From Cellvibrio sp. 79 (GTDB lineage: Bacteria; Pseudomonadota; Gammaproteobacteria; Pseudomonadales; Cellvibrionaceae), in the NCBI GenBank assembly GCA_003056245.1, contig MVDH01000001.1, positions 1,736,716-1,800,715 of the forward strand: a stretch of DNA of 64,000 nt, in the 5' to 3' direction. Below, piece after piece: positions 50,096 through 64,000 of the stretch. The notes beneath the pieces were generated by a model, which saw nothing but the letters and a program-made list of their open reading frames with translations, was not told the DNA's origin and made no database searches. Made by a program: the position numbers and the translations under genes. Positions within the stretch are counted from its first letter, which is position 1. Every line of letters starts with the position of its first letter.

Positions 50096-50113
50096 GATAT
50101 TGGTAGGCCCGCT

Positions 50114-50518
50114 TCAGGAGTTAGGGGTAATTATTGTGTTATTTAAATTTGTTTTCCAATAAAGCAACTTAGCAAAAAGAGTTACATATTTTGCCAGTAT
50201 GAAAATTACACATAAACCTAAAATAACGCCGCTGCTATTTGCCAGCATATCGGCAAGGCTAAACGTGCGTGGCGGATTGAAATGTTGGCCTAGTTCGATG
50301 AGAAAAGAATAGGTAACCAGGAAGATTGCACGTTGCAAAAATGCCCATGATGGAAATGCAAAACTAATAGAAACCGCAGCAACAATGTATCCGGAAAAAT
50401 GCATTAACAAATCATTGAACATTGGTACTGATTTTTCGGGATGCGGCGTTAGCCCGAGATAAGTGTAGATCGCCAGCAAACCGCAAAATTGTATTACACA
50501 TAACACTCGCCACCACAT
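50114..50518 (-). CDS. VanZ-like family membrane protein
   Basis: From ATG 50518 (WWRVLCVIQFCGLLAIYTYL), with GAGGGAAG just upstream, this has 134 residues and four hydrophobic segments. The VanZ-like signature is visible: the first helix, then KSVPMFNDLLMHFSGYIVAA and YSFLIELGQHFNPPRTFSLADMLANSSGVILG. The family is named after a teicoplanin resistance protein, but most members have unknown roles; resistance should not be assumed. Confidence 0.86.
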   Translation of the reverse strand: MWWRVLCVIQFCGLLAIYTYLGLTPHPEKSVPMFNDLLMHFSGYIVAAVSISFAFPSWAFLQRAIFLVTYSFLIELGQHFNPPRTFSLADMLANSSGVILGLCVIFILAKYVTLFAKLLYWKTNLNNTIITPNS

Positions 50519-50576
50519 TGATACTTCCCTCAAAAAATTTTGGAAAAGCATAACAGTCTGGCGAGTTTCAGGCGAT

Positions 50577-51200
50577 TTATTTAATCAACGCAGCAATAGG
50601 TTCAGCGGCATATAGATCTTGCGGAGTATTGATATTCAGGAAGGGATCAAAGGCATCGGCTGCGAATTCAACCTGTACCATTTTCTGTTGCTTGACCCAA
50701 TCTTGCAGGCGCGGAATATCCCCGCTTTGCAGTTGCTCTTCAATTTTTTCCAACAATGATGCATGCCAGAGTGAGAATATCGGATGGGTGCGATTTTTAG
50801 ACGCCGCTACCGCCAGCAAGCTATTGCTTGCAGCGGCGGCACCGCGCAAGCGCTCCACCAAATCAGTAGGAAAGAATGGCGTATCAGAGGCAAAACTTGC
50901 CAGCCATTCGGCATCGGGATTGTCGTCATGCATTCTCTTTAACCCGGCATGAATACCGGCTAATGGACCAAGGTTGTTGGGGAATACATCCGGGATAACC
51001 GGCAAACGCGTGCGGGCAAAGCGCAAACTACTGCCATTGGCATTCAATAACAGTAATCCAACCTGGGGTTGGGCGCGTTCAACAGTCCGTTGCAACAGGG
51101 TTTTGCCAGCGAGGGGAAGGAGGCATTTATCGCCGCCGCCCATACGTTTGGCCAGGCCGCCGGCCAAAATAACGCCGACAACGGATTGGGAGATGCTCAT
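50577..51200 (-). CDS. mobA: Molybdenum cofactor guanylyltransferase
   Basis: MobA attaches GMP to molybdopterin to make the bis-MGD cofactor. The 207-residue product has the nucleotidyltransferase motif GVILAGGLAKRMGGGDKCLL at the N-terminus. FVSDTPFFP-type sequence appears as SFASDTPFFPTDLVERL, and the C-terminal FLNINTPQDLYAAE is typical. Any molybdoenzymes of the organism lie outside this window. Confidence 0.94.
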   Translation of the reverse strand: MSISQSVVGVILAGGLAKRMGGGDKCLLPLAGKTLLQRTVERAQPQVGLLLLNANGSSLRFARTRLPVIPDVFPNNLGPLAGIHAGLKRMHDDNPDAEWLASFASDTPFFPTDLVERLRGAAAASNSLLAVAASKNRTHPIFSLWHASLLEKIEEQLQSGDIPRLQDWVKQQKMVQVEFAADAFDPFLNINTPQDLYAAEPIAALIK

Positions 51201-51481
51201 AGGTTTATTAGCTGGGTCAGGATTATCTTCTAGGATTATTTAAGCGCTCATCCCGGCATCATGGCGCGCGAATCCTTATTTGTCGTACTGTGTAGTTTAG
51301 CTGGTGGCAAGGGTTAGGACCACGATTTTTATGTGAAGGTTTTGTCAGTGTAAAAATTTGATATAAAGGTAAAAGCTATTAAGGGAATAATTATAATTGA
51401 TTTTTTGTATTTTGTGCTGCCGCCTACTATAGCCATGTATTTCCAGGCACTTTATTTAAATCACTAATGGATGACGTAATT

Positions 51482-52927
51482 ATGAGCAAAATCGATTTGA
51501 CCATTTCAGCAGGGGCTCCCGTGGCAGATGACAACAATAGTATTAGTGTTGGTCCACGCGGCCCGCTTACCTTCGATAACCATTACCTGTTCGAAAAACT
51601 TGCGCATTTTAACCGCGAACGAATTCCCGAGCGTGTAGTACATGCACGTGGTACCGGTGCATACGGTCATTTCACATTGAGCAAAAGTTTGAGCCAATAT
51701 TCGGTCGCGGATTTTTTACAAAAGGAAGGCGATAAGACCGAAGTATTTTTACGTTTTTCTACCGTAGGTGGCGGTCAGGATTCAAGTGATTACGCACGTG
51801 ACCCGCGTGGTTTTGCGGTAAAGTTTTATACGCGTCAAGGCAATTACGATGTAGTTGGTAATAACACACCAGTTTTCTTTTTGAATGATCCAATTAAATT
51901 TCCCGATTTCATTCACTCGCAAAAGAAAAATCCGCAAACGAATTTGCCAGATCCTGCAGCCGCGTATGAATTTTGGGCCAATCACCCGCAGTCGTTACAC
52001 CAAATGACGATACTGATGTCTGATCGTGGTATTCCATTGTCCTATCGCCACGTCCACGGTTTTGGTTCGCACACGCTAAGTTTGTGGAACGACAAAGGCG
52101 AACGTTACTGGGTGAAATGGCATTTCAAAACCAATCAGGGAATCAAAACCCTGACGGATGAAGAGGCAGCAAAACAACCACCGTTTGGTGCACAAAAAGA
52201 TTTGGTGGATGCGATCCATCGTGGCGAATTTCCGAGCTGGACGGTAAAAATCCAGATCATGCCAGAGAAAGACGCAGAGACTTACCATATCAATCCATTT
52301 GATTTAACGAAAGTCTGGCCACACAAAGATTATCCGTTGATTGAAATTGGCCAACTTGAATTAAATCGCAATGTGCAAAATTATTTTGCTGAAACCGAAC
52401 AGTCTGCATTTGCGCCGAGTAATCTCGTTCCTGGCACTGGTGGATCGCCTGATAAAATGTTGCAAGCGCGCATGCTCGCGTACCAGGACGCACATCGCTA
52501 CCGCGTAGGTGTTAATCATAACCAGTTGCCGGTGAATGCGCCGCGCTGTCCGGTCAACCATTATCAACGCGATGGTGCCGCTGCCGGTTGCCCGTTTAGC
52601 AATGGCAGCCAGCCGCAAAATAGTGGTGCGAATTATTATCCAAACGATCGTACGGCACAGGGTTATCCTGCACCGAATCCTGCCTATCGTGAGCCGCCGA
52701 TGACATTAAGTAGTGCAGTAGTGGATCGTTACGATCAATTGAGTGAAGACTACTATTCGCAAGCAGGTGATTTATTCCGTTTGATGAACGACGATCAAAA
52801 ATTGCAGCTTGTGCGCAATATTGCAGGAGGTTTATCGCAGGCGAATGCATCAATCCAGGAGCGGATGCTGGGTTATCTGCACAAAGCTGATCCAACTTAT
52901 GCTGTGATGGTAAAAGCACTTTTATAA
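51482..52927 (+). CDS. katA: Monofunctional haem catalase
   Basis: Catalase dismutates hydrogen peroxide to water and oxygen. I choose ATG 51482 (SKIDLTISAGAPVADD), preceded by GGATGACG, giving 481 residues; an ATG at 51467 would add five. The active site is FNRERIPERVVHARGTGAYG with the catalytic His, and RFSTVGGGQDSSDYARDPRG. The proximal haem motif is RMLAYQDAHRYRVG with the ligand Tyr. No signal peptide is seen, so it is cytoplasmic. It is followed by a strong terminator and divergent from mobA. The gene symbol is by class only. Confidence 0.95.
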   Translation: MSKIDLTISAGAPVADDNNSISVGPRGPLTFDNHYLFEKLAHFNRERIPERVVHARGTGAYGHFTLSKSLSQYSVADFLQKEGDKTEVFLRFSTVGGGQDSSDYARDPRGFAVKFYTRQGNYDVVGNNTPVFFLNDPIKFPDFIHSQKKNPQTNLPDPAAAYEFWANHPQSLHQMTILMSDRGIPLSYRHVHGFGSHTLSLWNDKGERYWVKWHFKTNQGIKTLTDEEAAKQPPFGAQKDLVDAIHRGEFPSWTVKIQIMPEKDAETYHINPFDLTKVWPHKDYPLIEIGQLELNRNVQNYFAETEQSAFAPSNLVPGTGGSPDKMLQARMLAYQDAHRYRVGVNHNQLPVNAPRCPVNHYQRDGAAAGCPFSNGSQPQNSGANYYPNDRTAQGYPAPNPAYREPPMTLSSAVVDRYDQLSEDYYSQAGDLFRLMNDDQKLQLVRNIAGGLSQANASIQERMLGYLHKADPTYAVMVKALL

Positions 52928-52944
52928 TTGTTGTTCGATAGAAA

Positions 52945-52975
52945 CAAAAACGCCGCTGTATCAGCGGCGTTTTTG
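52945..52975 (+). terminator. Bidirectional terminator between catalase and GMC oxidoreductase genes
   Basis: CAAAAACGCCGCTG (52945-52958), loop TAT, CAGCGGCGTTTTTG (52962-52975). It is a perfect 14-bp stem with A and T runs on both sides, and the genes converge on it. Confidence 0.93.
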
Positions 52976-52988
52976 TCTAGGCATATTT

Positions 52989-54689
52989 TTAAAGCGCTCC
53001 CGCCAGGATTTGCTTGTGCGCATAATCTACCGCGCGTGCGGTTAAAGCCATGTAGGTGATGCTAGGGTTTTGCGTTCCAGAACTTGTCATGCAAGCACCA
53101 TCAGTTACAAATACATTGGGTACATCGTGCATTTGATTCCATTTGTTGAGCACGCTGGTTTTTGGATCTCGCCCCATGCGCGCCGTTCCCATTTCGTGAA
53201 TGCAGGCTCCAGGTGCAGTAGCGTTATTGTATGAAGTGATATTGGTGCAACCAGCAGCCTCCAGCATTTCTACCGCACACTTGACGCCGTCCTCTCGCAG
53301 CTTGTGCTCATTCTCACGCAACTTTGCATCAAAGGTGATGAGCGGCATTCCGTGTTTGTCGGTCTTACTAAAGTCGAGGAACATGCGGTTCTCGTGATAC
53401 GGCAGCATTTCGCCAAAGCATGTCATCCTTACACCATAAGCACCCGGTGTGAAAATAACGTCTTTGAGTGCACTTCCAATAACGCCTTCCGGTGCATTAT
53501 TAATTCGCTGTGCTTGACCCTGATAACCAAAACCGCGCAAGTAATCTGCTTTTTTAGTTTTCTCATCAAGGTTAGTGAAGCGCGGGATATAAAAACCCGT
53601 TGGTTTACGGCCGGAATAATAAGTATCTTCAAGTCCCGGCAGAATACCGGAAGCACCCATTCCGTAATGGTGATCCATAAGGTTATGGCCAAGTTCACCG
53701 CTACTGTTGCCGAGCCCATTTGGAAAAGTCTCCGAACGGCTGTTAAGCAAAATCGCGGTAGTACCCACAGTACTGGCATTACAAAAAATAATGCGTGCGG
53801 AAATCTCGGATTGTTCGCCCGTTGTTGCATCTTTAATACGCACACCAGTTGCCCGGCCACTGGCTGCATCATAAATAATTTCCTGCACTATGCTGTTGAA
53901 GCGCAGGGTTAAGTTTCCTGTTTCTTCGGCAACGGGCAGTGTGGCTGATTGACTGCTGAAGTAGGCACCAAATGGACAGCCGCGCCAGCAGCGATCACGG
54001 GATAAACATTGGCTGCGTTTACCTTTATGTTTGTCCGGTTTGTACTCGCTGAGGTTGGCAACACGGCCGGGCGTAACGACGCGTCCGGGAAATTTTTTTG
54101 CAACACTTTCACGTAAATGTTGTTCAGCGCAATTGAGTGGAAATGGTTTTAAAAATACACCATCAGGAACTTGCTTCAGATTTTCTTCTTGTCCGCTTAC
54201 GCCAACAAATGTCTCGACATAGGTGTACCAGGATTCAATATCAGCGTAACGAATTGGCCAATCAACAGCGATGCCTTCTTTTTTGTTGGCTTCGAAATCA
54301 ATATCGCTCCAGCGATAACATTGACGTCCCCACATCAGTGAACGCCCGCCTGTATGATGGCCGCGAATCCAGTCGAAGCGTTCAACTTCCTCGTAAGGAT
54401 ATTCGTCGTCTTTATTAACCCAATGTTTATTTGCTTGCCTAACCCACCAAGGCAAACGATCCTGTTTGTGATAGTGAGTGGCGATTTCTGCCTTGGGAAC
54501 CCGGTCATTATGGGGCAGATCCCAAGGGTCCATCATTGCCGTGGGATAATCTCCATGTACTACGTCGCGGCCGCGCTCAAGCACAAGCGTTTTGTAGCCT
54601 TTAGTGCAAAGTTCCATAGCCGCGAAGCCGCCGCTAATGCCGGAGCCAATTACAATCGCGTCGAAATCGGTTGCTGTTGTTCTGATCAT
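52989..54689 (-). CDS. GMC-family FAD oxidoreductase
   Basis: The 566-residue protein starts at ATG 54689, three bases past the stop of the upstream gene. It begins with an FAD-binding motif FDAIVIGSGISGGFAAMELC and has the GMC features RSLMWGRQCYRWSD, CLSRDRCWRGCPFGAYFSSQ and HEMGTARMGRDPKTSV. The C-terminal VTDGACMTSSGTQNPSITYMA carries the NP motif. It resembles the large subunit of gluconate or 2-keto-gluconate dehydrogenases. It follows a subunit-3-like gene on the same strand, so the pair probably forms one dehydrogenase. The sugar or alcohol substrate is unknown. Confidence 0.92.
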   Translation of the reverse strand: MIRTTATDFDAIVIGSGISGGFAAMELCTKGYKTLVLERGRDVVHGDYPTAMMDPWDLPHNDRVPKAEIATHYHKQDRLPWWVRQANKHWVNKDDEYPYEEVERFDWIRGHHTGGRSLMWGRQCYRWSDIDFEANKKEGIAVDWPIRYADIESWYTYVETFVGVSGQEENLKQVPDGVFLKPFPLNCAEQHLRESVAKKFPGRVVTPGRVANLSEYKPDKHKGKRSQCLSRDRCWRGCPFGAYFSSQSATLPVAEETGNLTLRFNSIVQEIIYDAASGRATGVRIKDATTGEQSEISARIIFCNASTVGTTAILLNSRSETFPNGLGNSSGELGHNLMDHHYGMGASGILPGLEDTYYSGRKPTGFYIPRFTNLDEKTKKADYLRGFGYQGQAQRINNAPEGVIGSALKDVIFTPGAYGVRMTCFGEMLPYHENRMFLDFSKTDKHGMPLITFDAKLRENEHKLREDGVKCAVEMLEAAGCTNITSYNNATAPGACIHEMGTARMGRDPKTSVLNKWNQMHDVPNVFVTDGACMTSSGTQNPSITYMALTARAVDYAHKQILAGAL

Positions 54690-54691
54690 TT

Positions 54692-55285
54692 TTATAGTGC
54701 CCACGCTTTATTGTTAACTTCATCGACTGAAATGCAGGGTTTGTAGAATCCGGGAATCGGCAAATAATTTAAAAACTTTTCGCCAATTTCTTCAGTCGTT
54801 AAGTAATACGCGATAACTTGTTGCTTGAACTCGACCAAGGCTTTTTTTGCGCCCACTACATTTTCATCCTGGCTCAGCTCAAGTGACTTTAATGTTTCTA
54901 CTTGATCTGTCGGTGAGAGCTGTAAAAATTTCTGCTGGCCCAAATAATTTTCCAGAATCAACCATTGGGTTTTGAATGTGGTTTGATATGCAGAATCAAA
55001 AACCTGTCCCAACATGGAATCGAGTGTGATGTGAACTTTTACATCAGTTGCAGATGGGCTGTCGGTGCGCGGCAAAATCGTATCTGCCAGTAATCCAACC
55101 AGCGTAAATTGTTCGGGTGTAAAAAAGTGCAAAAGGTTAGAGGGGGCGGAAATGCCTGTTCCTTTTGCCTTATTTGGGGCAGTGGTTTGTTCTGAACATC
55201 CCGATAAAATCGCACTCGCTAGCGATGCGGATATAGCACTACCGGTAATCCAGGCGGTGTACCTGAGAGCTTCTCTTCTGTTCAT
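54692..55285 (-). CDS. Gluconate 2-dehydrogenase subunit 3-like protein
   Basis: I start this at the ATG near 55285 (NRREALRYTAWITGSAISAS), giving 197 residues; the open frame runs 31 codons further. An Arg-Arg motif precedes a hydrophobic stretch, which ends in ILSGCSEQ, a lipobox. The protein may therefore be a Tat-exported lipoprotein. The mature part fits the subunit 3 family: FFTPEQFTLVGLLADTILPRTDSPSATDVKV. It is adjacent to and co-directional with the GMC oxidoreductase, which lacks a signal of its own and could be exported with it. The start coordinate is good to about one base. Confidence 0.85.
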   Translation of the reverse strand: MNRREALRYTAWITGSAISASLASAILSGCSEQTTAPNKAKGTGISAPSNLLHFFTPEQFTLVGLLADTILPRTDSPSATDVKVHITLDSMLGQVFDSAYQTTFKTQWLILENYLGQQKFLQLSPTDQVETLKSLELSQDENVVGAKKALVEFKQQVIAYYLTTEEIGEKFLNYLPIPGFYKPCISVDEVNNKAWAL

Positions 55286-55764
55286 GGGGGGCCTTATGTT
55301 GGTGGCGTTTTTATTGTGTGGTGTAACTAGTAATTGAGCTTTTCTGCAAACAAGTCTCCATATAGTCAATGTTGTCATAAGGTGTTGATGGTGTAAATTA
55401 GCTGGAAATCCAACGGTGGTCGCCCACGCCTGATTTATAGGGAACTCGATTTATCTGCCTAACAAAAGTTGTATGGGCATGACATTTCTTAACGAAATTT
55501 AGCCATCGATGAGTCACTTAAATTGATGCATCACAAGTAGCCAGTTGTGTGTTTGATGCTGTTTCATGTTTGGCAGGATGGATTGTTTGTAGAGTTTCGC
55601 CTGCGTCGATTGTGAATGGGGTGGCCGGTAGATGGCAGCTAATAAGGACGCTTTGGTGCTGCGGTGAGTTAGAATAGAACTCCATCGCATGCACTAATTA
55701 AAAGGTACTGCTTGCAGTGCCTTTTTGCATTCCGGGTAATGACTAATTTGGGCGGAGTTACTGT
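55286..55764. other. pdxH upstream region, about 480 bp
   Basis: No gene is supported. The left part holds the promoter of the minus-strand dehydrogenase pair. An intrinsic-type terminator at 55700-55726 in the plus direction has no open reading frame ahead of it. Confidence 0.6.
55700..55726 (+). terminator. Orphan intrinsic terminator (sRNA end or pdxH leader attenuator)
   Basis: AAAAGG (55700-55705) and ACTG (55707-55710), loop CTTG, CAGT (55715-55718) and CCTTTT (55720-55725) form a stem with one T-G mismatch pair, followed by T. It points to a short transcript from this intergenic region or to attenuation before pdxH. Confidence 0.6.
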
Positions 55765-56409
55765 ATGGAATTAAAACTGGACGATTTTCGTCGCGAGTAC
55801 ACGCAAGGGGGGTTGGAGTTGGCGGATTTGGCCGCTAGTCCGTTTGAGCAATTTAATCGCTGGATGGAGCAAACCATCCAGTCGGGTATCCCTGATCCAA
55901 ACGCTATGACCATCGCCACGGTTGATGCGTCTGGCCAGCCTTCGCAACGAATTGTATTGCTCAAACACCTCGACGAAAAAGGTTTTGTGTTTTACACCAA
56001 TTTGAATAGCCGTAAGGCGCAGGATTTGAAAAGTAATCCTAAAATCAGTTTGCATTTCCCTTGGTATTTTTTGGAACGACAAGTAAAAGTTTGCGGCGTT
56101 GTTGAACAATTATCGACAGCGGAAGTGTTGAAGTATTTCGTTACTCGCCCGCGCGATAGCCAATTGGGGGCCTGGGCATCACAGCAAAGCAAACCTATTT
56201 CATCGCGTGCATTGTTGATGCAGCAATTTGAATCGATGAAAAATAAATTTGCCAAAGGTGAAGTACCTCTGCCGGATTTTTGGGGAGGTTTCCGTGTAAA
56301 GCCGCATCAAATAGAATTCTGGCAAGGCGGTGCTGCGCGTTTGCATGATCGCTTTGAGTACAACTTGCAACAAAATGGTTCCTGGCTAATTCAACGCCTT
56401 GAACCGTGA
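55765..56409 (+). CDS. pdxH: Pyridoxamine 5'-phosphate oxidase
   Basis: PdxH oxidises pyridoxine/pyridoxamine 5'-phosphate to pyridoxal 5'-phosphate with FMN. The 214-residue product matches the family: [71 protein letters not shown] and the C-terminal [18 protein letters not shown] 55765 is preceded by GGGCGGAG. A short inverted repeat element follows the gene. Confidence 0.97.
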
Positions 56410-56424
56410 TGCCGCACTAACGTA

Positions 56425-56470
56425 GGTTGGGTTAGGTGCGAGTACAACGAGCATCGTAACCTAACTGCGT
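56425..56470. repeat. Short intergenic inverted repeat downstream of pdxH
   Basis: GTTAGGT (56431-56437) and ACCTAAC (56459-56465) bracket a 21-nt loop, within a stretch beginning GTAGGTTGGG. Similar GTAGGTTGGGTTA elements are common dispersed repeats in many bacterial genomes; only one copy is seen in this window. Confidence 0.5.
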
Positions 56471-56513
56471 AACGCGGAACTCTATTCAATAAGTCATCGC
56501 TAATTCGTAAACA

Positions 56514-57500
56514 ATGAAATATATAACCACCAAAAATCCCGGCGATGCTTCACAGTTATTTATTGATGAGGCCGAAACTCCAACCGTTAAATCGAGCGAG
56601 GTTTTAATTCGTGTTTACGCCGCCGGTATTAATCGTCCTGATATTTTGCAACGCCAGGGATTGTATCCTCCGCCGGCAAATGCATCCCCAATTCTGGGTC
56701 TGGAAATAGCAGGTGAAATTATTGCTTGTGGCGAACAGGTAAAACGCTGGCGCATTGGCGATAAGGTGTGCGCCCTGGTCAATGGTGGCGGTTATGCTGA
56801 ATATGCTGTTGCACCAGCGAGCCAGTGCTTACCGATTCCGGAGAGTTTTTCTTATGTTGAAGCTGCCGCATTACCGGAAACTTTTTTTACTGTATGGCAC
56901 AACTTGTTTCAGCGCGCACAATTAAAAGCGGGTGAAATATTATTGGTTCACGGCGGAGCCAGCGGCATAGGCACCAGCGCAATTCAATTAACAAAGGCGT
57001 TTAACGTCAATGTAATTGCAACGGCGGGCTCAGCGGAAAAATGCGAGGCAATTACCAAACTCGGTGCCACTGCGATTAATTATCGCGAACAGGATTTTGT
57101 CGCAGAGGTAAAAGCATTAACCGCAGGGCAGGGTGCTAATGTGATTCTGGATATGGTGGGTGGTGATTATATCCAGCGCAACTTTTCTGCTGCTGCAAAA
57201 GAGGGGCGGATCGTAAATATCGCTTTTTTAAATGGCAGTAAAGTTGACATTGATTTAATGCCGCTGATGTTGAAACGTTTAACCCTGACTGGATCTACTT
57301 TGCGCGCGCAATCCGTTGATACCAAAGCAGGCATCGCAAAAGAATTGGAAGAACAGGTCTGGCCATTATTAAATTCGAAAAAAATCAAACCGATAATTGA
57401 TTCAATCTTTCCATTTACTGACGTGGTAAAAGCGCATGAATTGATGGAGTCGAATCAGCATATTGGAAAAATAATCCTGGATTTTAATACCACGCTTTGA
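56514..57500 (+). CDS. NAD(P)H quinone oxidoreductase (zinc-free MDR family)
   Basis: The 328-residue protein belongs to the medium-chain reductase family without catalytic zinc (PIG3/QOR type). The N-terminal half contains VLIRVYAAGINRPDILQRQG and PPPANASPILGLEIAGEI. The NADPH-binding site is LVHGGASGIGTSAIQLTKAF. It is followed at 13 bases by the CoA transferase gene and probably transcribed with it, DUF1653 and tadA. Confidence 0.92.
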   Translation: MKYITTKNPGDASQLFIDEAETPTVKSSEVLIRVYAAGINRPDILQRQGLYPPPANASPILGLEIAGEIIACGEQVKRWRIGDKVCALVNGGGYAEYAVAPASQCLPIPESFSYVEAAALPETFFTVWHNLFQRAQLKAGEILLVHGGASGIGTSAIQLTKAFNVNVIATAGSAEKCEAITKLGATAINYREQDFVAEVKALTAGQGANVILDMVGGDYIQRNFSAAAKEGRIVNIAFLNGSKVDIDLMPLMLKRLTLTGSTLRAQSVDTKAGIAKELEEQVWPLLNSKKIKPIIDSIFPFTDVVKAHELMESNQHIGKIILDFNTTL

Positions 57501-57513
57501 AAAGAGAATTGTT

Positions 57514-58713
57514 ATGAGTAATACACGTCGCCCACTTGATGGTATTCGCGTTATTGAAATTGGCCAATTGCTTGCAGGGCCTTTTGCTGGTTGTATGCTC
57601 GGTTATTTCGGTGCTGAAGTCATAAAAATTGAACCACCGGAAGGTGATCCTATTCGCGGCTGGCGTGTACTGGAAAACGGCACATCGCATTGGTGGCGGA
57701 GTATCGGACGCAATAAAAAAAGCATTACACTGGATTTAAAAAACGCGGAATCCCAACAAATTGCGCGGCAATTAATTGATAAAGCGGATATTGTTATTGA
57801 AAATTTTCGCCCCGGTGTTATGGAAAGCTGGGGGCTTGGTCCGGAAGAAATTAAAAAAACCAATCCTGGAATTATTTATGCGCGCATCTCTGGTTATGGG
57901 CAATCCGGCCCTTATGCCAGTAAACCCGGTTTCGCTTCTGTGTGCGAAGGGATGAGTGGCTTTCGTTATGTGAATGGGTTTCCTGACCAGGCACCGGTGC
58001 GCCCCAATTTAAGCATTGGCGATACTATTTCCGGTATCCATGCCGCATTGGGTATTGTATTGGCATTGCTGGAGCGCGAACGTAATACTGGCGGCGCAGG
58101 GCAGGTTGTTGACGTTGCGCTTTATGAATCCATGTTTAACTTGATGGAAGCGGTTGTGCCGGAGTTTTCCGGTGCTGGAGTTATTCGTGAGCCATCGGGA
58201 ACAACAGTCACTGGTATTGTTCCTACCAATACCTATCGATGCAAAAATGGAAAGTATGTAGTCGTTGGAGGTAATGGCGATTCAATTTTCCAGCGGTTGA
58301 TGGAAGTGGCTGGTCATCCCGAAATGGCGCGCGATCCACGTATGGCCAATAATGCGGGGCGCGTGCAGCACGAGTTGGAAATTGATAATGCACTCGCCGC
58401 CTGGTGTATGAGCAAACACTCTGATGAAATTTTGCAACTGCTCGAAACAGCACGCGTGCCTGCTGGCCCTATTTATAATGTGCAGGATATGTTTGCAGAC
58501 GAACACTTTAACGCACGCGGTATGTTTGAAGAGGTAGAGATTAATGGCAAGCCATTGAAGATTCCTGCAATCCTGCCAAAGCTTTCTGATACACCGGGCC
58601 GTACAGATTGGCCGGGTGGGAATATCGGTAGCCATACACAGGAAATTTTGGAATCTGTATTGAATTTGTCGCCGGAAAAAATCCAGGAATTAAAAATTGC
58701 AGGTGTAATTTAA
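57514..58713 (+). CDS. CaiB/BaiF family CoA-transferase
   Basis: Class III CoA-transferases move CoA between organic acids. The 399-residue product has the family opening PLDGIRVIEIGQLLAGPFAG followed by GAEVIKIEPPEGDPIR. It also has KKSITLDLKN, VIENFRPGVMESWGLG and the active-site Asp region VVDVALYESMFNLMEAV. The substrate pair cannot be read from sequence. ATG 57514 is preceded by AAAGAGAA. The stop codon directly abuts the DUF1653 start. Confidence 0.94.
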   Translation: MSNTRRPLDGIRVIEIGQLLAGPFAGCMLGYFGAEVIKIEPPEGDPIRGWRVLENGTSHWWRSIGRNKKSITLDLKNAESQQIARQLIDKADIVIENFRPGVMESWGLGPEEIKKTNPGIIYARISGYGQSGPYASKPGFASVCEGMSGFRYVNGFPDQAPVRPNLSIGDTISGIHAALGIVLALLERERNTGGAGQVVDVALYESMFNLMEAVVPEFSGAGVIREPSGTTVTGIVPTNTYRCKNGKYVVVGGNGDSIFQRLMEVAGHPEMARDPRMANNAGRVQHELEIDNALAAWCMSKHSDEILQLLETARVPAGPIYNVQDMFADEHFNARGMFEEVEINGKPLKIPAILPKLSDTPGRTDWPGGNIGSHTQEILESVLNLSPEKIQELKIAGVI

Positions 58714-58983
58714 ATGAGTCTTAAAGCGGGTTTGTACCGTCACTATAAAGGTAAAGATTATTTTGTATTCCAGGTGGCGCTACACAGTGAAACTGATGAG
58801 CCTTATGTTATCTATCGTTACTTATACGATGATTATGGATGGTCTGTACGACCTTTGGATTTATTTACCAACACTGTGGAGATTGCCGGTGAAACTATTC
58901 CGCGTTTTCGTTTGGTGCGTGAACTAACGGCAATAGAACAGGTAAATTATTTGGCCCCGGTTGTGCGTGAGATAAATTCGTGA
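58714..58983 (+). CDS. DUF1653 family protein
   Basis: This 89-residue protein has the DUF1653 signature: GLYRHYKGKDYFVFQVALHS, ETDEPYVIYRYLYDDYGWSV and RPLDLF, with a final PRFRLV. The domain's function is unknown. Its ATG directly follows the CoA-transferase stop, and its TGA overlaps the tadA GTG by four bases. So it is translated within a tight operon. Confidence 0.92.
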   Translation: MSLKAGLYRHYKGKDYFVFQVALHSETDEPYVIYRYLYDDYGWSVRPLDLFTNTVEIAGETIPRFRLVRELTAIEQVNYLAPVVREINS

Positions 58984-59507
58984 GTAATGAGGAACAGCAA
59001 AATATCTCCGTTTCATCAGTAACATTTTCTACTGATGATATTCGCTGGATGGAATATGCAATTAATCTGGCAGAAAAAGGCAAGGCGCTTGGTGAGGTTC
59101 CAGTAGGAGCTGTGATTGTTAAAGAGGGAACAATACTCGGTGAAGGTTTTAACCAACCGATTACCGCGTGTGACCCTACTGCGCACGCGGAAATTGTTGC
59201 ATTACGACAAGCCGCCAATCATGTACAAAATTATCGTCTGGTTGATTCTACGATTTATGTAACGCTGGAACCGTGCACTATGTGTGTCGGAGCTTTGGTT
59301 CATGCGCGCATTGCGCGTTTGGTTTTTGGCACGACTGAACCCAAAGCGGGGGCGGTAGTAAGTAAATCGCAGCTATTGGTTAGCGATTACTTCAATCATC
59401 GTGTTGAATATTCCAGTGGTTTACTCGCAACACAATGTCAGCATCAGCTCAGTAATTTTTTTGCAATGCGACGCGAGCAAAAGCGCAATGAAAAGAAAAA
59501 TAATTAA
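58980..59507 (+). CDS. tadA: tRNA-specific adenosine deaminase TadA
   Basis: TadA deaminates A34 of tRNA-Arg(ACG) to inosine. The 175-residue product starts at GTG 58980, overlapping the previous stop. The zinc site is HAE at residues 69-71 (with catalytic Glu71) and PCTMC at 98-102. GEVPVGAVIVKEGTILGEGFN and HARIARLVFGTTEPKAGAV are typical. The N-terminal extension of about 20 residues and the Lys-rich C-terminus are not conserved parts. Confidence 0.96.
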   Translation: MSNEEQQNISVSSVTFSTDDIRWMEYAINLAEKGKALGEVPVGAVIVKEGTILGEGFNQPITACDPTAHAEIVALRQAANHVQNYRLVDSTIYVTLEPCTMCVGALVHARIARLVFGTTEPKAGAVVSKSQLLVSDYFNHRVEYSSGLLATQCQHQLSNFFAMRREQKRNEKKNN

Positions 59508-59538
59508 TTGCGATTAATAGAAATTTTCATTTGGAGTA

Positions 59539-59571
59539 TTTTCCCTTTTCCCTTTTCCCTTTTCCCTTTTC
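59539..59571 (+). repeat. Heptanucleotide tandem repeat (TTTTCCC), about 4.7 copies
   Basis: TTTTCCC repeats at 59539-59566 in four exact copies, followed by TTTTC. It lies between tadA and a possible small gene at 59658. The unit is seven bases, so copy number would shift any frame crossing it, but no gene does. Confidence 0.9.
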
Positions 59572-59657
59572 TTGCATTCCTAATGCGCAACAGATTTATC
59601 TTATTGATCTGAGTGTTTTCCTGATTTGATGGTTTTGGCGCCTGAATTATTAAAATT

Positions 59658-59912
59658 GTGAACCTTTTCCAAAAGCTTTTTGATGATTATGCGCCAAAGG
59701 GGCTGGAAAATTATTTTCAGTATGAGATACTATCAACCAATAAGAAGAAAATAATTTACAATCCGAAAAAGCCAGTTTTTAGTTATAAGAAAAAAGCGCA
59801 CAACAAAATACAACAACAGCGCACCGCCACTACAAAAAAGCCAAAAACAAGAACTACTAAATTCAAATTATTGATTTTATTAATATTTTTCTGTTTTACC
59901 ACCCAGTTGTAA
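59658..59912 (+). CDS. Possible small Lys-rich membrane-tail protein
   Basis: An 84-codon frame with GTG start and no good ribosome site. The N-terminus (NLFQKLFDDYAPKGLENYFQ) looks protein-like, the middle is very rich in Lys, Thr and Gln, and the C-terminus is a hydrophobic helix (FKLLILLIFFCFTTQL). It could be a tail-anchored protein or a chance frame in AT-rich DNA. I recognise no family. Confidence 0.35.
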   Translation: MNLFQKLFDDYAPKGLENYFQYEILSTNKKKIIYNPKKPVFSYKKKAHNKIQQQRTATTKKPKTRTTKFKLLILLIFFCFTTQL

Positions 59913-60031
59913 TTGATTTGCTGTGTTTTTGCGCTGCCAGAATGCGATTTTGCACTGGTCAGTTACGCTTGCCTGCAAATCGTCGATTACACCTTTAAAA
60001 ACACAATCACAACAATAAAGGCGCGGACGAC

Positions 60032-60640
60032 ATGCTTAAAACCCTGATTGTTTATGCTCACTTATTGGCAGCTTGCGTTGCCGTGGGAGTTTTGTTGATT
60101 CAAGACTTGGCCTTGGCCAAATCAAAAGGATCGCGGCTTTCTGAAACGGCAATCAAGGAGCTGACTAAATCGGCAGACATTATGTTTATTGCCCTGGTGG
60201 TGTTGTGGATTTCGGGGTTGTCGCTGGTGCTGGTGGGATACATCGACAATCCGCAGCAGTATTTATTGAATGAAAAGCTATGGGCCAAATTCACCGTGGT
60301 TTCGGTGTTGACGTTAAACGGCATCGCCCTGCATTACTTCAGTTTCCCGCGCATGATTTCCAGTCGCGGCTTGCTGGGGCAACCGGCAATTGAACAAATT
60401 CTTATGGCGCTGACAGGTGCTGTTTCAACGGTTTCCTGGCTTTTCGCCTGTTATTTGGGCATCGCCCGCAACTGGAACTACACCGTCGATTACAGCTTTG
60501 TAATGTTTATTTATTCCGGTCTTCTGATTTGCGCATTCATTGTTGCGGGAGAAGTGTTGCGTGGTATGCGTAAAGGTTATGCAGATCCGCGTGCCCTGAG
60601 TGACCGCATGCCGATGAATGCCTCACGCAAATTTGATTAA
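60032..60640 (+). CDS. Integral membrane protein of unknown function
   Basis: The 202-residue protein has five predicted TM segments (TLIVYAHLLAACVAVGVLLI; FIALVVLWISGLSLVLVGYI; LWAKFTVVSVLTLNGIALHY; ALTGAVSTVSWLFACYLGIA; SFVMFIYSGLLICAFIVAGE). I do not assign a family. A His in TM1 and one in TM3 (HYFSFP) might bind haem or metal, but this is speculation. It lies upstream of, and co-directional with, the CBM2-YceI genes after a weak terminator. Confidence 0.78.
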   Translation: MLKTLIVYAHLLAACVAVGVLLIQDLALAKSKGSRLSETAIKELTKSADIMFIALVVLWISGLSLVLVGYIDNPQQYLLNEKLWAKFTVVSVLTLNGIALHYFSFPRMISSRGLLGQPAIEQILMALTGAVSTVSWLFACYLGIARNWNYTVDYSFVMFIYSGLLICAFIVAGEVLRGMRKGYADPRALSDRMPMNASRKFD

Positions 60641-60669
60641 GGATTTCCCTGTCACCTGTTTGGATATAC

Positions 60670-60692
60670 CCCGGACTATTGCCGGGTTTGTT
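60670..60692 (+). terminator. Weak terminator after the membrane protein gene
   Basis: CCCGG (60670-60674), loop ACTATTG, CCGGG (60682-60686), then TTTGTT. A five-pair GC stem with a short broken T tract. Confidence 0.4.
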
Positions 60693-60872
60693 GGACCCCC
60701 GCAGCAGGCGAGTTCCCGGTGCGGGATTGTTAGCTCTAGTCATTATTAAGAACGTCACTAAAACGAAAGTACTACCACGAAAGCCACTAGAAAAAAGTAA
60801 ATAACAATACTTTGGTAACAACCCTGTTAATCCCCGCCGATGCCAATCGGCTTCACCTTCGAGGAATGCACT

Positions 60873-61976
60873 ATGAGTAGCCTTAAAGCCTTTGCGAAGG
60901 ACCCTCGTCCGGCGGGTGCGCTAACGCGCTCCCTCTGTGCACTGGGGTTCTCTCTGGCTGTATCCGCGCTTTCCATTCAAGCCCAGGCCGCGTGTCTTTA
61001 CACGGTTACCGGTCAATGGACTAATGGATTCAGCGCCACCATTAAAGTCACCAATGACGGCACTACTGCCACTAACGGTTGGAATCTCGGTTGGCAGTAC
61101 GCTGGCGATAACCGTGTTACTGGTGGATGGGATGTAGCTCTGACTGGTACCAACCCTTACACCGCAAAAAACGCGGGATGGAACGGGACGATCCAGCCTA
61201 ATCAATCCGTTACTTTTGGCTTCCAGGGAACTAAAGGTGCAGCGGCAGCTGAGATTCCTGCGTTGACTGGCCCTTTATGTGGAGCTACTAACAGCTCGAG
61301 TGCACCGGCTAGCAGTTCATCACTGTCTAGCAGTTCTCGCTCATCAAGCAGTTCATCAGTGCTCCCAAGCAGCTCATCCATTCCGAGCAGCTCGGTCCGC
61401 TCCAGTAGCAGCAGTTCAGTACTCAGCTCATCATCTTCATCAGTACCTGTTACTGGTGGATGGACATTGAATACCACCGACTCTTACCTGAACTTTGCCA
61501 CTACCAAAAACACCAGCAACCTGGAAGTTCATAACTTCACCACTATCAGTGGCGATATCAATGCTTCTGGCGTTGCCACCCTGGCGATTGATCTGAATAG
61601 CGTGAATACCGGTGTGGCCCTGCGTGACCAGCGTATGCGCGATTTGTTGTTTGAAACAGCAACCAATCCAACTGCTACGGTGACAGTCACTGTACCGGCT
61701 AACTTGATTGCCAATTTAGCGGTTGGCCAAACAAGCCAGACGGACATTACCGCCAGCCTCAACCTGCATGGTGTGACTGCCAATATCACTACCAAAGTGT
61801 CTGTGCAGAAGCTGACTGCCTCGCGTGTAGTAGTGCAAAGCCTGCCACCGGTATTGGTGAAAGCCGAAACCTACGGCCTGACTGCCGGCGTTGAAGCGCT
61901 GCGTGTAGCGGTGAATATTGCTTCGATCAACGCCTCTGTCCCTGTGGACTTTGCGCTCGTCTATGACGCCCGTTAA
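60873..61976 (+). CDS. Secreted CBM2 - poly-Ser linker - YceI-like protein
   Basis: From ATG 60873, with GAGGAA upstream, this is a 367-residue secreted protein. A signal peptide ends near AQAA (residue 39-40). The CBM2 cellulose-binding domain spans Cys41-Cys136, a typical terminal disulfide. It has the three expected surface aromatics (Trp49, Trp86, Trp103). A Ser-rich linker covers about 139-191. A YceI-like domain follows (about 194-367: DSYLNFATTKNTSNLEVHNF, LRDQRMRDLLFE, LHGVTANIT). YceI domains bind polyisoprenoids such as ubiquinone. It resembles the Cbp2E-type proteins I recall from Cellvibrio japonicus. The next gene starts 24 bases later. Confidence 0.93.
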   Translation: MSSLKAFAKDPRPAGALTRSLCALGFSLAVSALSIQAQAACLYTVTGQWTNGFSATIKVTNDGTTATNGWNLGWQYAGDNRVTGGWDVALTGTNPYTAKNAGWNGTIQPNQSVTFGFQGTKGAAAAEIPALTGPLCGATNSSSAPASSSSLSSSSRSSSSSSVLPSSSSIPSSSVRSSSSSSVLSSSSSSVPVTGGWTLNTTDSYLNFATTKNTSNLEVHNFTTISGDINASGVATLAIDLNSVNTGVALRDQRMRDLLFETATNPTATVTVTVPANLIANLAVGQTSQTDITASLNLHGVTANITTKVSVQKLTASRVVVQSLPPVLVKAETYGLTAGVEALRVAVNIASINASVPVDFALVYDAR

Positions 61977-62000
61977 TTGGAAGCAGAGAGAGAACCTATC

Positions 62001-64000
62001 ATGAAAAAATTACTGAAAGTGTCGATGCTTTCCACCAGTATGGTGCTGGGCATCATGGCTGCCAGCGGCGTTAATGCCCAGGGCGCTTGTAGTGTCGCAT
62101 TACAAACTGAAAATAACTGGGGCGCGGGTGCCCAGTACAAAGCTACGTTGACTAATAAAGGTGCAGCAAAAACCGGTTGGGAGCTGTGCTGGAATTTTGC
62201 GGGTAACGAAACTGTTTCCAGTCTTTGGGAAGGCACTTACGCCCAGACTGGTAAAAAAGTATGTGTGAAGAATGTAGGCTATAACGGCAACCTGGCTACT
62301 GATGGCTCGGTGGTGTTTGGCTATATTGCTTCCAATCCCGGTGCTGCGCCTGTTGATTACACATTGAATGGCGCTTCTTGTGGTTACAGCACCAGCAGTG
62401 CGGCCAGTGTTCCCAGTAGTGCGTCGAGTTCCAGTTTTTCCAGCGTATCTCCAGCTAATGCTGCACGTTGGTTGCTGGATGCTCCTGCTTCCAGCTTCTA
62501 TTTTGTATCCGTTAAGAAAAGTACGGCGGGCGTAGAAACTCCGGAAAACTTCACCTTTAGTCAGCTGCAAGGTACGGTTTCTACAACTGGCCAGGCAACT
62601 TTGACTATTCCGTTGACCAGCATCAGCACCAACAATACTGTGCGTGATCCACGTATGCAGAGTTTGTTGTTTGAAGCGGCTTACCTGCCTAACTTGCATT
62701 TCACTACCCAACTGGATCTGGCTGCATTGGATTCCCAGGCTGTAGGTAGTATTAAAGTGCAAAGCGTTACCGGTAACCTGGTATTGCACGGTGTGGTTAA
62801 ATCCATCGTGTTCGACGCCGTAATCATGAAACACGCTAACAACAGCATCAGCGTATCTACCCGCAAGCCAATCGTGATTAACGCATTGGATTTTGATCTG
62901 GTAGGGGGTCTTGACGCTCTGCGTGCTGCGGTAGGTACGGTGGCAAATATTGGTGAGAAAGTACCTGTTTACTTCAAGGTTTTCCTCAACCGTGATAATC
63001 CAACGAATGTTCCGGCAATTAGCCTGGCTACTGCACCAGTAACACCATCAGGTCTGACCGGAACTGTAGTAAGCACCGGTGCAAGCTTGAACTGGGCGGA
63101 TGTCAGCAGTAACGAGACCGGCTTCCTGGTTCGTCGTAAAGGTGCTGATGGCCGTTGGGTAACTGCAAAAAACCTGGGCGCCAACAGTGTTAGCCATCTG
63201 GATCTGCTGTCTCTATCCGGTAGCTATGACTATAAAGTGCTGAGCTATACCGACAGCATTCCGTCTGCCGCGACGGCGCCAATCACTTTGGTGTATGAGA
63301 CTGGTTCTGCTTCGAGCTCTTCAGTGATTATTTCAAGCTCCAGTTCATCAATCACATCAACCAGCTCGATAGTTAGCACCAGCTCAAGCTCCAGTAGCTC
63401 AAGCAGCAGCGCGGGTCCAGTTGTTGGTAATGCAGCCCGCGGAGCAACCCTCTGGGGTACAGCTTCAGCTGCTGGTAAATGCTACGGTTGTCACGGTGAC
63501 ACCGAGAAGTTTGCTGATGGCTCTTTCTCGATTCCGGTGAATCCTAACCGCGCTTACTACCATCAAACCAAAGATGAGAAACTGGCACTGCGCGATTACA
63601 TCGCCAAGTACATGCCGCAAGGTGAGGGTGGAACACTGACTGCCCAGCAAGCTGCTGACCTGGAAGCCTTCCTGTTCACCAAACGCGCACCGTCTGATGG
63701 TATCCCGGATAACAGCATCACATCGTTCTCTTGCCCAAGCACTGCTACTGCGCCTGGCCAACGTACCTTGCGCTTGCTGACCCGTTCCGAGTACCAACGT
63801 TCTGTGCGTGACCTCGTGAATTACCAGCAAGATGTGATTTCCCGTTTGCCTGATGATGCGATCTCTGGTGCGTTCCAGAACAACAACCAATTGTTGGTAG
63901 ATAGCGCGCGTTACTCATCTTACGTATCGACTGCCGAGCGTATTGCCGATGACGTTGCAACCCGTTGGAACGCTGTACTGGCATGTACTCCTGGCGCAGC
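62001..64000 (+). CDS. Secreted CBM2 - YceI - FN3 - cytochrome c - PSD-type multidomain protein (cut by window end)
   Basis: I read this frame directly: ATG 62001 after AGAGAGAACC, open to the window end, with 666 residues visible. A signal peptide ends near VNAQ (residue 26). CBM2 spans about 29-127, with Tyr in place of the third binding Trp (VGYNG). A YceI-like domain lies at about 153-333, an FN3-like region at 345-430, and a Ser-rich linker at 435-472. A cytochrome c region carries CYGCH at 494-498. At about 589 LRLLTRSEYQRSVRDLV opens a PSD/DUF1587-type segment as found in planctomycete-type cytochromes. It resembles Cbp2D of C. japonicus, proposed to take part in redox steps of cellulose degradation. 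The C-terminus is outside the window. Confidence 0.93.
   Translation, partial: MKKLLKVSMLSTSMVLGIMAASGVNAQGACSVALQTENNWGAGAQYKATLTNKGAAKTGWELCWNFAGNETVSSLWEGTYAQTGKKVCVKNVGYNGNLATDGSVVFGYIASNPGAAPVDYTLNGASCGYSTSSAASVPSSASSSSFSSVSPANAARWLLDAPASSFYFVSVKKSTAGVETPENFTFSQLQGTVSTTGQATLTIPLTSISTNNTVRDPRMQSLLFEAAYLPNLHFTTQLDLAALDSQAVGSIKVQSVTGNLVLHGVVKSIVFDAVIMKHANNSISVSTRKPIVINALDFDLVGGLDALRAAVGTVANIGEKVPVYFKVFLNRDNPTNVPAISLATAPVTPSGLTGTVVSTGASLNWADVSSNETGFLVRRKGADGRWVTAKNLGANSVSHLDLLSLSGSYDYKVLSYTDSIPSAATAPITLVYETGSASSSSVIISSSSSSITSTSSIVSTSSSSSSSSSSAGPVVGNAARGATLWGTASAAGKCYGCHGDTEKFADGSFSIPVNPNRAYYHQTKDEKLALRDYIAKYMPQGEGGTLTAQQAADLEAFLFTKRAPSDGIPDNSITSFSCPSTATAPGQRTLRLLTRSEYQRSVRDLVNYQQDVISRLPDDAISGAFQNNNQLLVDSARYSSYVSTAERIADDVATRWNAVLACTPGA

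What the first reader, a model, noticed from the sequence alone, without database searches (positions are those of the whole stretch)
62001..64000. Cellulose-binding, YceI, FN3, haem c and PSD-type domains in one secreted protein
The visible 666 residues join a CBM2, a quinone/isoprenoid-binding-type YceI domain, an FN3-like module, a CYGCH haem site and the start of a DUF1587/PSD-type segment. This domain chain suggests electron transfer at the cellulose surface, for example to feed lytic polysaccharide monooxygenases. Similar proteins (Cbp2D of Cellvibrio japonicus, and S. degradans YceI-CBM proteins) are known to me, so the idea has precedent. The role of the PSD part, mostly known from planctomycetes, is unclear.
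Basis: partly seen in the sequence, partly recalled or inferred. Interest (0 to 1): 0.75.

Follow-up and report, generated by a model that had tools for sequence, protein, structure and literature searches.

The report
Cellulose redox protein with overlooked partner
The gene is a relative of a known haem- and quinone-type protein (Cbp2D) that a soil bacterium needs for good growth on solid cellulose, and its neighbours point to a consistently linked partner protein that could explain what this puzzling system does.

Summary
In detail: from ATG 62001 run CBM2, YceI, an FN3-like segment (no Pfam hit), a haem-c domain (CYGCH) and DUF1587. The full gene (1126 aa) adds DUF1595, DUF1592 and DUF1588 with a second haem site. 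It is a Cbp2D homologue: 61% identical to C. japonicus Cbp2D, same architecture, Cbp2E-like gene upstream. The DUF1587-onward part is the published X132 region.

What I add: in all 28 examined Cbp2D-type genes with room downstream, a DUF1552 gene with a twin-arginine motif follows; in 100 family genomes all 58 with DUF1552 are among the 61 with the X132 marker DUF1588. One Cellvibrio lineage (four genomes) lacks both the X132 haem motif and the DUF1552 His/Asp site. DUF1552 models as an alkaline-phosphatase fold; X132 models confidently (pLDDT 94) without a PDB match. Published genetics, and two one-contig genomes with the module but no LPMO10 hit, weaken the LPMO-donor idea.

Best reading: a cellulose-targeted redox enzyme in which X132 haems serve a DUF1552 metal site, with YceI as quinone carrier. 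Metal, complex, substrate and electron direction are inferred.

The parts
60032..60640 (+). DUF2214-like multi-helix membrane protein (helices inferred from sequence); frequent neighbour
   Evidence: Pfam DUF2214 E 2.1e-6, below cut-off; a homologue lies on the same strand within 6 kb of 11 of 15 distinct Cbp2D-type genes with over 5.5 kb on both sides, C. japonicus among them
60873..61976 (+). Cbp2E-like CBM2-YceI protein (ORF open from 60840; likely start ATG 60873; secretion inferred)
   Evidence: CBM_2 E 4e-27, YceI E 4.4e-16; YceI part matches PDB 2x34, E 3.1e-46; start chosen by the MSSLKA/MSSLQA start shared with paralogues
62001..64000 (+). Cbp2D-type gene, 5' part (full gene is 1126 aa and would end at window coordinate 65381)
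62088..62381 (+). CBM2 domain, res. 30-127
   Evidence: Pfam E 1e-18
62469..62981 (+). YceI / X158 domain, res. 157-327
   Evidence: Pfam E 1e-15; PDB 2x34, E 2.9e-19
63018..63305 (+). FN3-like segment, res. about 340-435
   Evidence: no Pfam hit here; homologous segments in relatives hit fn3 below cut-off
63426..63695 (+). X183 haem-c domain, res. about 476-565, CYGCH at 63480-63494
   Evidence: PDB 7b21, E 7.5e-17
63771..63959 (+). DUF1587 (PSD3), start of the X132 region; DUF1595, DUF1592 and DUF1588 (second haem motif, CSNCH) follow beyond 64000, then a DUF1552 gene 43 nt after the stop
   Evidence: Pfam; downstream sequence in locus L016

Best explanation
The gene encodes a Cbp2D homologue and is the middle member of a conserved unit: Cbp2E-like (CBM2 + YceI), Cbp2D (CBM2 + YceI + FN3-like + X183 haem + X132 haem), DUF1552. 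Proposed mechanism: CBM2 domains hold Cbp2D and Cbp2E on cellulose. Their YceI lipocalin-type domains carry a quinone. Two c-haems (X183, then X132) form a short wire. DUF1552, with a twin-arginine export motif, an alkaline-phosphatase-type fold and a conserved His/Asp site, is the catalytic or terminal redox partner of X132. I judge the likeliest direction to be reductive: quinol -> haems -> DUF1552 metal -> O2 or H2O2, cutting or loosening crystalline cellulose without an LPMO. In some Cellvibrio clusters a linked cytochrome b561 could recharge the quinone. Shown here: architecture, homology, gene order, co-occurrence, joint absence of haem and His/Asp motifs in one lineage, fold class of the DUF1552 model. 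Inferred: haem and metal binding, quinone binding in this copy, Tat export, physical complex, direction of electrons, substrate.
For: Homology: 61% to C. japonicus Cbp2D over full length. Gene order: Cbp2E-like gene upstream in 24 of 24, and DUF1552 downstream in 28 of 28, of the distinct Cbp2D-type genes examined that have over 1.5 kb on that side, C. japonicus included; two more loci fetched later agree. Wider: in loci found through X132 alone, 78 of 84 X132 ORFs have DUF1552 within 500 nt on the same strand. Own genome: 8 DUF1552 genes, each beside one of 8 X132 genes. 100 family genomes: DUF1588 in 61, DUF1552 in 58, all 58 shared. Site conservation: haem motif in 72 of 72 X132 rows (70 CxxCH, 2 CxxxCH); two His columns invariant in 67 of 67 DUF1552 rows. 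Joint absence: one orthologous pair in four Cellvibrio genomes lacks the X132 haem motif and the HxxxH plus Asp/His motif of DUF1552. DUF1552 model (pLDDT 83) matches LtaS and sulfatases, best Foldseek E 1e-6. YceI-quinone and b561 precedent: PMC9113575; b561 PF01292 in some clusters. Phenotype beyond LPMO: PMC12542752.
Against: I found no biochemistry on DUF1552 or X132. The joint absence is one lineage, hence one event. Neighbouring genes co-evolve anyway, so the identity correlation between the 8 own pairs (r 0.97) does not prove contact. The published mutants show a need, not catalysis. Alkaline-phosphatase-fold proteins are usually hydrolases or transferases (general knowledge), so DUF1552 could be a non-redox enzyme. 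TM-scores by query length to the 50 listed structures are modest (0.34-0.43). b561 is near only 2 of 15 Cbp2D-type loci with room. The pair that lacks both sites is still maintained, so the unit can have another role. L046 and L081 have X132 with room and no DUF1552.
Confidence: 0.5

Rival explanations
1. Cbp2D/E are electron donors to secreted LPMO10 enzymes.
For: Isolated CjX183 reduces and activates two LPMOs, slowly (PMC8981238, passages). Across 100 family genomes LPMO10 goes with DUF1588: 50 of 61 versus 13 of 39, Fisher p 1.6e-6. Cbp2D-type genes (YceI+FN3-like query covered over at least 260 of 284 residues): 20 of 23 genomes also have LPMO10, versus 43 of 77 others, p 0.007. Genome relatedness is not corrected for.
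Against: lpmo10B deletion grows like wild type while cbp2D/E deletions do not, and either stops growth in a multi-mutant already lacking lpmo10B. T. turnerae X183 domains did not support LPMO activity. G069 and G029, one-contig genomes at 99-100% completeness, hold the YceI / Cbp2D-type / DUF1552 trio with no LPMO10 hit (G029's two YceI proteins have no CBM2 hit); a third, G068, is only 72% complete. The LPMO link is looser than the DUF1552 link.
Confidence: 0.2
2. Cbp2D and Cbp2E form a heterodimer that itself cuts cellulose, with no further partner (hypothesis of PMC12542752).
For: Similar phenotypes of the two deletions and loss of growth in the multi-mutants.
Against: It leaves DUF1552 unexplained although it follows 28 of 28 examined Cbp2D-type genes with room. 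Cbp2E of the usual size has only CBM2 and YceI by Pfam. In several Cellvibrio the Cbp2E position carries GH5 and/or a Cip1-like domain fused to YceI, which makes its YceI look like a carrier rather than the active half.
Confidence: 0.1
3. An electron outlet: electrons from sugar oxidation or the quinone pool are passed outward to oxygen, humics or metals near the cellulose.
For: Secreted multi-haem proteins; PMC10916295 suggests such a role for the T. turnerae proteins. One own-genome relative fuses a sugar dehydrogenase domain (GSDH) to cytochrome motifs and X132.
Against: Two haems make only a short wire, and the C. japonicus mutants grow like wild type on glucose but not on insoluble cellulose. 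A porin-cytochrome conduit was not searched for.
Confidence: 0.12
4. YceI-b561 type protection against peroxide or radical damage near oxidative cellulolysis.
For: Mutants in BcnA (YceI) and LcoA (b561) show more lipid peroxidation (PMC9113575, abstract); b561 genes occur in some clusters.
Against: CBM2 targeting, and the strong insoluble-cellulose phenotype in strains without lpmo10B; b561 near only 2 of 15 loci with room.
Confidence: 0.05

Closest known systems
Cbp2D of Cellvibrio japonicus (CBM2-X158-FN3-X183-X132)
   Same: Same domain order and length class (1126 vs 1122 aa), 61% identity, Cbp2E-like gene upstream, DUF1552 downstream
   Different: The tree places the window copy in a separate, well-supported clade from the C. 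japonicus copy; this genome holds six Cbp2D-type genes
S. degradans X158 (YceI) domain, PDB 2x34/2x32
   Same: YceI parts of both window proteins match it (E 2.9e-19 and 3.1e-46)
   Different: Quinone binding not tested for the window proteins
[quoted passage not shown]
   Same: X183 and X132 domains in proteins with signal peptides; TERTU_3803 also has CBMs (PMC10916295, passages)
   Different: X122 and other domains instead of YceI; architecture differs
PSCyt3/PSD genes of Planctomycetes and Verrucomicrobia
   Same: Same Pfam domains; PSCyt2 and PSCyt3 genes noted there as usually next to two families of unknown genes, some with CBMs (PMC5615132, passages)
   Different: No link to Cbp2D made in the passages read
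BcnA-LcoA (YceI lipocalin + cytochrome b561)
   Same: YceI with linked b561, seen in some Cellvibrio Cbp2D clusters
   Different: Reported role is limiting lipid peroxidation; no haem c, CBM or X132 was named in the passages read

Membership tests
Cbp2D (CBM2-X158-FN3-X183-X132) | CBM2 and YceI/X158 domains in this order | tested here: met
   Pfam above cut-off; PDB 2x34 match
Cbp2D (CBM2-X158-FN3-X183-X132) | FN3 domain between YceI and X183 | tested here: inconclusive
   No Pfam hit here or in C. japonicus; relatives hit fn3 below cut-off
Cbp2D (CBM2-X158-FN3-X183-X132) | X183 haem-c domain | tested here: met
   PDB 7b21 (C. japonicus Cbp2D X183), E 7.5e-17, CYGCH
Cbp2D (CBM2-X158-FN3-X183-X132) | C-terminal X132 with CxxCH (begins with DUF1587) | tested here: met
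   DUF1587/1595/1592/1588 and CSNCH at 964
Cbp2D (CBM2-X158-FN3-X183-X132) | Overall homology and cbp2E neighbour | tested here: met
   61% identity to the C. japonicus copy, taken as such from a 100% match to the X183 of PDB 7b21 and an ORF of 1122 aa as published; Cbp2E-like gene upstream
Cbp2D (CBM2-X158-FN3-X183-X132) | Needed for growth on insoluble cellulose; haem and quinone bound | not testable with these tools
   Needs mutants and purified protein
LPMO electron donor | Occurs only where an LPMO10 is available | tested here: not met
   G069 and G029 have the module and no PF03067 hit; overall association is positive but loose. LPMOs outside PF03067 were not searched
DUF1552 as alkaline-phosphatase superfamily | Fold match to solved members | tested here: met
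   Best Foldseek E 1e-6, probability 1.00, to LtaS and sulfatases; TM-scores modest. Modelled protein is the L023 homologue
DUF1552 as alkaline-phosphatase superfamily | Catalytic nucleophile and metal ligands in place | tested here: inconclusive
   Conserved His pair plus Asp/Glu and His motif; the nucleophile was not examined and no coordinates were available to superpose

The most novel reading that the evidence does not exclude
X132 plus DUF1552 is an undescribed class of redox enzyme: a c-haem protein whose fold has no Foldseek match among solved structures, wired to an exported alkaline-phosphatase-fold metalloprotein. Cbp2D is its cellulose-aimed form, acting on crystalline cellulose without an LPMO; other versions are aimed by other modules (for example a CBM26 protein with a GSDH domain).
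Probability: 0.3. Interest if true: 0.9.

Novelty: new member of a known kind. Interest (0 to 1): 0.55.

Why it matters
What Cbp2D and Cbp2E do is an open question: they matter for growth on solid cellulose, apparently beyond feeding the LPMO (PMC12542752). A third gene that follows Cbp2D in 28 of 28 examined cases with room, and whose conserved site is missing together with the haem in one lineage, gives that question a concrete next experiment. [quoted passage not shown]

Tried and rejected
Rejected: that the domain chain is a chance or mis-assembled fusion (34 Cbp2D-type ORFs, some cut by contig ends, 31 distinct). Rejected: that the PSD part is peculiar to this gene or confined to planctomycetes (DUF1588 in 61 of 100 family genomes). 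Profile search of X132 (A4) against PDB sequences gave nothing convincing: a cytochrome c555 construct at E 3.1e-4 over a 34-position stretch that did not pass on its own, and one entry at 0.12. The DUF1552 profile gave only weak matches, best a sulfatase at 0.063; DUF1552 alone by phmmer nothing below 0.47. Foldseek for X132 gave no match at E 0.001 or better, best 0.82. Promoter and terminator scan found chance numbers: 6 versus 6.4 and 8 versus 7.0 in shuffles. No tRNA in 50000-64000. NCBIfam gave only partial matches far below cut-off. Papers: 'DUF1552' with 'DUF1592' 0 papers; 'DUF1552' 2 papers, neither among the 9 'Cbp2D' papers; five DUF numbers 3 papers; 'HXXSHH' or the guessed locus tags CJA_2614 to CJA_2618 0 papers; X132/X183 terms 6 papers. 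Supplements were not searched, and a paper may mention the gene under another name.

Results against my reading: L046 and L081 have X132 with room but no DUF1552; L032, L099, L076 and L086 lack it at or within about 0.5 kb of a contig end. Three family genomes have weak DUF1588 hits (5.4e-5 to 1.5e-7) without DUF1552. At most 20 DUF1552 candidates per genome were scored in several large cases, so copy numbers there are lower bounds. Of 67 DUF1552 rows, 65 have HxxxH and 2 (L092 and one of two L062 copies) one extra residue between the two His. For the haem-less pair only the last 485 residues of the X132 frame were seen in three of the four genomes; the full protein was seen only in the window's genome.

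Rows dropped: 84 X132 ORFs gave 78 long enough, 72 after near-duplicate removal; DUF1552 72 to 67. The largest of 46 other X132 proteins over 700 aa (L030) was left out of the Pfam tally to fit the size limit, so 45 of 46 were scanned. The 100 family genomes were drawn by the tool from a larger group. Cbp2D-type loci outside the named set were chosen by me from the X183 and DUF1588 hit lists, not all hits.

Full report
What is there. The gene starts at ATG 62001 and is open to the end of the window. Pfam confirms CBM2, YceI and DUF1587 in the visible part. The genome holding the window (5.7 Mb, 13 contigs) allowed the gene to be read to its end: 1126 aa, adding DUF1595, DUF1592 and DUF1588 with a second haem motif, CSNCH at residue 964. 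The first haem motif, CYGCH at 494, lies in a domain that matches the solved X183 domain of C. japonicus Cbp2D (PDB 7b21, E 7.5e-17); the YceI part matches the S. degradans X158 structures 2x34 and 2x32. The FN3 segment has no Pfam match of its own, but homologous segments in relatives match fn3 weakly.

What it is. The best match is Cbp2D. I found the likely C. japonicus genome (G064, 4,576,573 bases) by a 100% match to the 7b21 sequence; its gene is 1122 aa, as the literature says for Cbp2D. The window protein is 61% identical to it. The published name for the region that begins with DUF1587 is X132 (PMC8981238 and PMC10916295, passages). So the protein is a known kind. The nearest relative named to species is in Cellvibrio mixtus J3-8 (90% over full length). 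The window's genome holds six Cbp2D-type genes; the tree puts the window copy in a well-supported clade separate from the C. japonicus copy.

The overlooked neighbour. Directly downstream (43 nt) is a 414-aa protein of family DUF1552 with a twin-arginine motif. Among the distinct Cbp2D-type genes I examined, DUF1552 follows within 400 nt on the same strand in 28 of 28 with over 1.5 kb downstream, and a YceI protein of Cbp2E type precedes in 24 of 24 with over 1.5 kb upstream. C. japonicus has the same order: DUF2214-like protein, Cbp2E, Cbp2D, DUF1552. Only two held papers contain the word DUF1552, neither of them among the nine that contain Cbp2D, and the passages and sections I read of four Cbp2D papers (PMC12542752, PMC8981238, PMC10916295, PMC10154616) do not mention such a gene. 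One of the two, on freshwater Verrucomicrobia, says that PSCyt2 and PSCyt3 genes are usually next to two families of unknown genes (PMC5615132, passages), so a pairing of this sort has been noticed before, although its main text does not print the DUF1552 name.

The pairing is general. A scan of named genomes with the X132 alignment, which cannot favour DUF1552, gave 79 loci. Of 84 X132 ORFs in them, 78 have DUF1552 within 500 nt on the same strand, 69 downstream and 9 upstream. Of the other six, two (L046, L081) have room and lack it; four lie at or near a contig end. In 100 genomes of the bacterial family, DUF1588 is found in 61 and DUF1552 in 58, all 58 shared. In the window's own genome there are eight DUF1552 genes and each lies beside one of eight X132 genes.

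The sites go together. All 72 X132 rows of the named set keep a haem motif (70 CxxCH, 2 CxxxCH), and two His columns are invariant in all 67 DUF1552 rows. One relative in the window's genome (L021, 729 aa) has no CxxCH at all, and its orthologues in three more Cellvibrio-genus genomes have none in the 485 residues visible, which cover the DUF1588 end. Their DUF1552 partners, 72-89% identical to the one in the window's genome, lack the His pair and have Asn in place of the Asp and His of the second conserved motif. The visible frames are open, so this pair is kept. It is one lineage, hence one event, but it is the joint loss expected if the haem and the His/Asp site serve one reaction.

Structure. 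DUF1552 of L023 was modelled at mean pLDDT 83; Foldseek finds LtaS and sulfatases, best E 1e-6, probability 1.00, TM-scores by query length 0.34-0.43 among the 50 listed: an alkaline-phosphatase-type fold. X132 of L023 was modelled at mean pLDDT 93.6, pTM 0.92, and has no PDB match at E 0.001 or better. By Foldseek it has no solved counterpart; a second aligner was not available, so this is not proof of a new fold.

Quinone side. In most solved YceI proteins an isoprenoid, in some cases ubiquinone-8, sits in the barrel, and in Burkholderia a YceI lipocalin gene is linked to a cytochrome b561 gene whose product may reduce the bound quinone (PMC9113575, abstract and passages). Some Cellvibrio Cbp2D clusters carry a b561 gene (PF01292), but only 2 of 15 loci with room. 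In several Cellvibrio the Cbp2E position holds a longer protein, with GH5 cellulase and/or a Cip1-like domain fused to YceI (own genome; others), which ties YceI physically to cellulose-active modules.

The LPMO question. Support: CjX183 can activate LPMOs, slowly (PMC8981238); LPMO10 and DUF1588 co-occur (50 of 61 versus 13 of 39, p 1.6e-6), and Cbp2D-type genes likewise (20 of 23 versus 43 of 77, p 0.007). Relatedness of genomes is not corrected for. Against: an lpmo10B deletion grows like wild type, cbp2D or cbp2E deletions do not, and adding either to a multi-cellulase mutant already lacking lpmo10B stops growth on insoluble cellulose (PMC12542752, sections 14 and 19), although the authors count lpmo10B among six required genes; T. 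turnerae X183 domains failed as donors (PMC10916295, conclusions); and two one-contig genomes, G069 and G029, have the YceI / Cbp2D-type / DUF1552 trio with no LPMO10 hit (the two G029 YceI proteins have no CBM2 hit). A third genome without LPMO10, G068, is 72% complete and says little.

Mechanism. I propose that DUF1552 is the missing working part: CBM2 domains aim, YceI carries quinone, X183 and X132 pass electrons, and the DUF1552 metal site acts, most likely by activating O2 or H2O2 on crystalline cellulose. The domains, the haem motifs, the gene unit and the shared fate of the two sites rest on data; the metal, the complex, the electron direction and the substrate are inference. The authors of PMC12542752 already suspect direct cutting by a Cbp2D/E pair; the present evidence says that a third protein should be considered for that model.

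Verdict. The interest lies in the linked DUF1552 protein, which can be tested by one gene deletion in a laboratory strain.

Noticed in passing
window 52989-55378 (- strand): GMC oxidoreductase next to a gluconate 2-dehydrogenase subunit 3 type protein; possible periplasmic FAD sugar dehydrogenase about 6.6 kb before the Cbp2D gene. A cytochrome subunit was not looked for.
   Followed up: no
L022:1550-9474 (G000 contig C8): A 2192-aa protein joins CBM26 (three stretches), a glucose/sorbosone dehydrogenase domain, four CxxCH motifs and X132, followed by DUF1552; perhaps a starch-aimed version of the same system.
   Followed up: partly
L020:6773-9637 and L025, L026, L044, L120: The Cbp2E position holds a CBM2-GH5-YceI fusion, in L025, L044 and L120 also with a Cip1-like domain; in L118, L120 (second copy) and L125 a CBM2-Cip1-like-YceI protein.
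   Followed up: partly
L021:3554-7028 and L127-L130: A CBM2-X132 protein without haem motif, paired with a DUF1552 without its His/Asp motif, kept in four Cellvibrio-genus genomes; perhaps a non-redox version with a new role.
   Followed up: partly
L018, L019, L020 (G000 contigs C7, C4, C11): Three contigs of the window's assembly end 20-25 bases before the start of a Cbp2D-type gene, so near-identical gene starts may have broken the assembly there; upstream neighbours are unseen.
   Followed up: no
alignment A6 (45 other X132 proteins): CBM2 in 20 of 45; one member matches GH18 and one matches a di-haem peroxidase (CCP_MauG) domain.
   Followed up: no
window 60032-60640: DUF2214-like protein with one conserved His near the start and another mid-protein in the eight homologues aligned; might bind haem b, untested.
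   Followed up: partly
G051 (same genus): A genome of the same genus with no LPMO10, DUF1588, DUF1552 or Cbp2D-type YceI hit; a natural negative for comparison.
   Followed up: no
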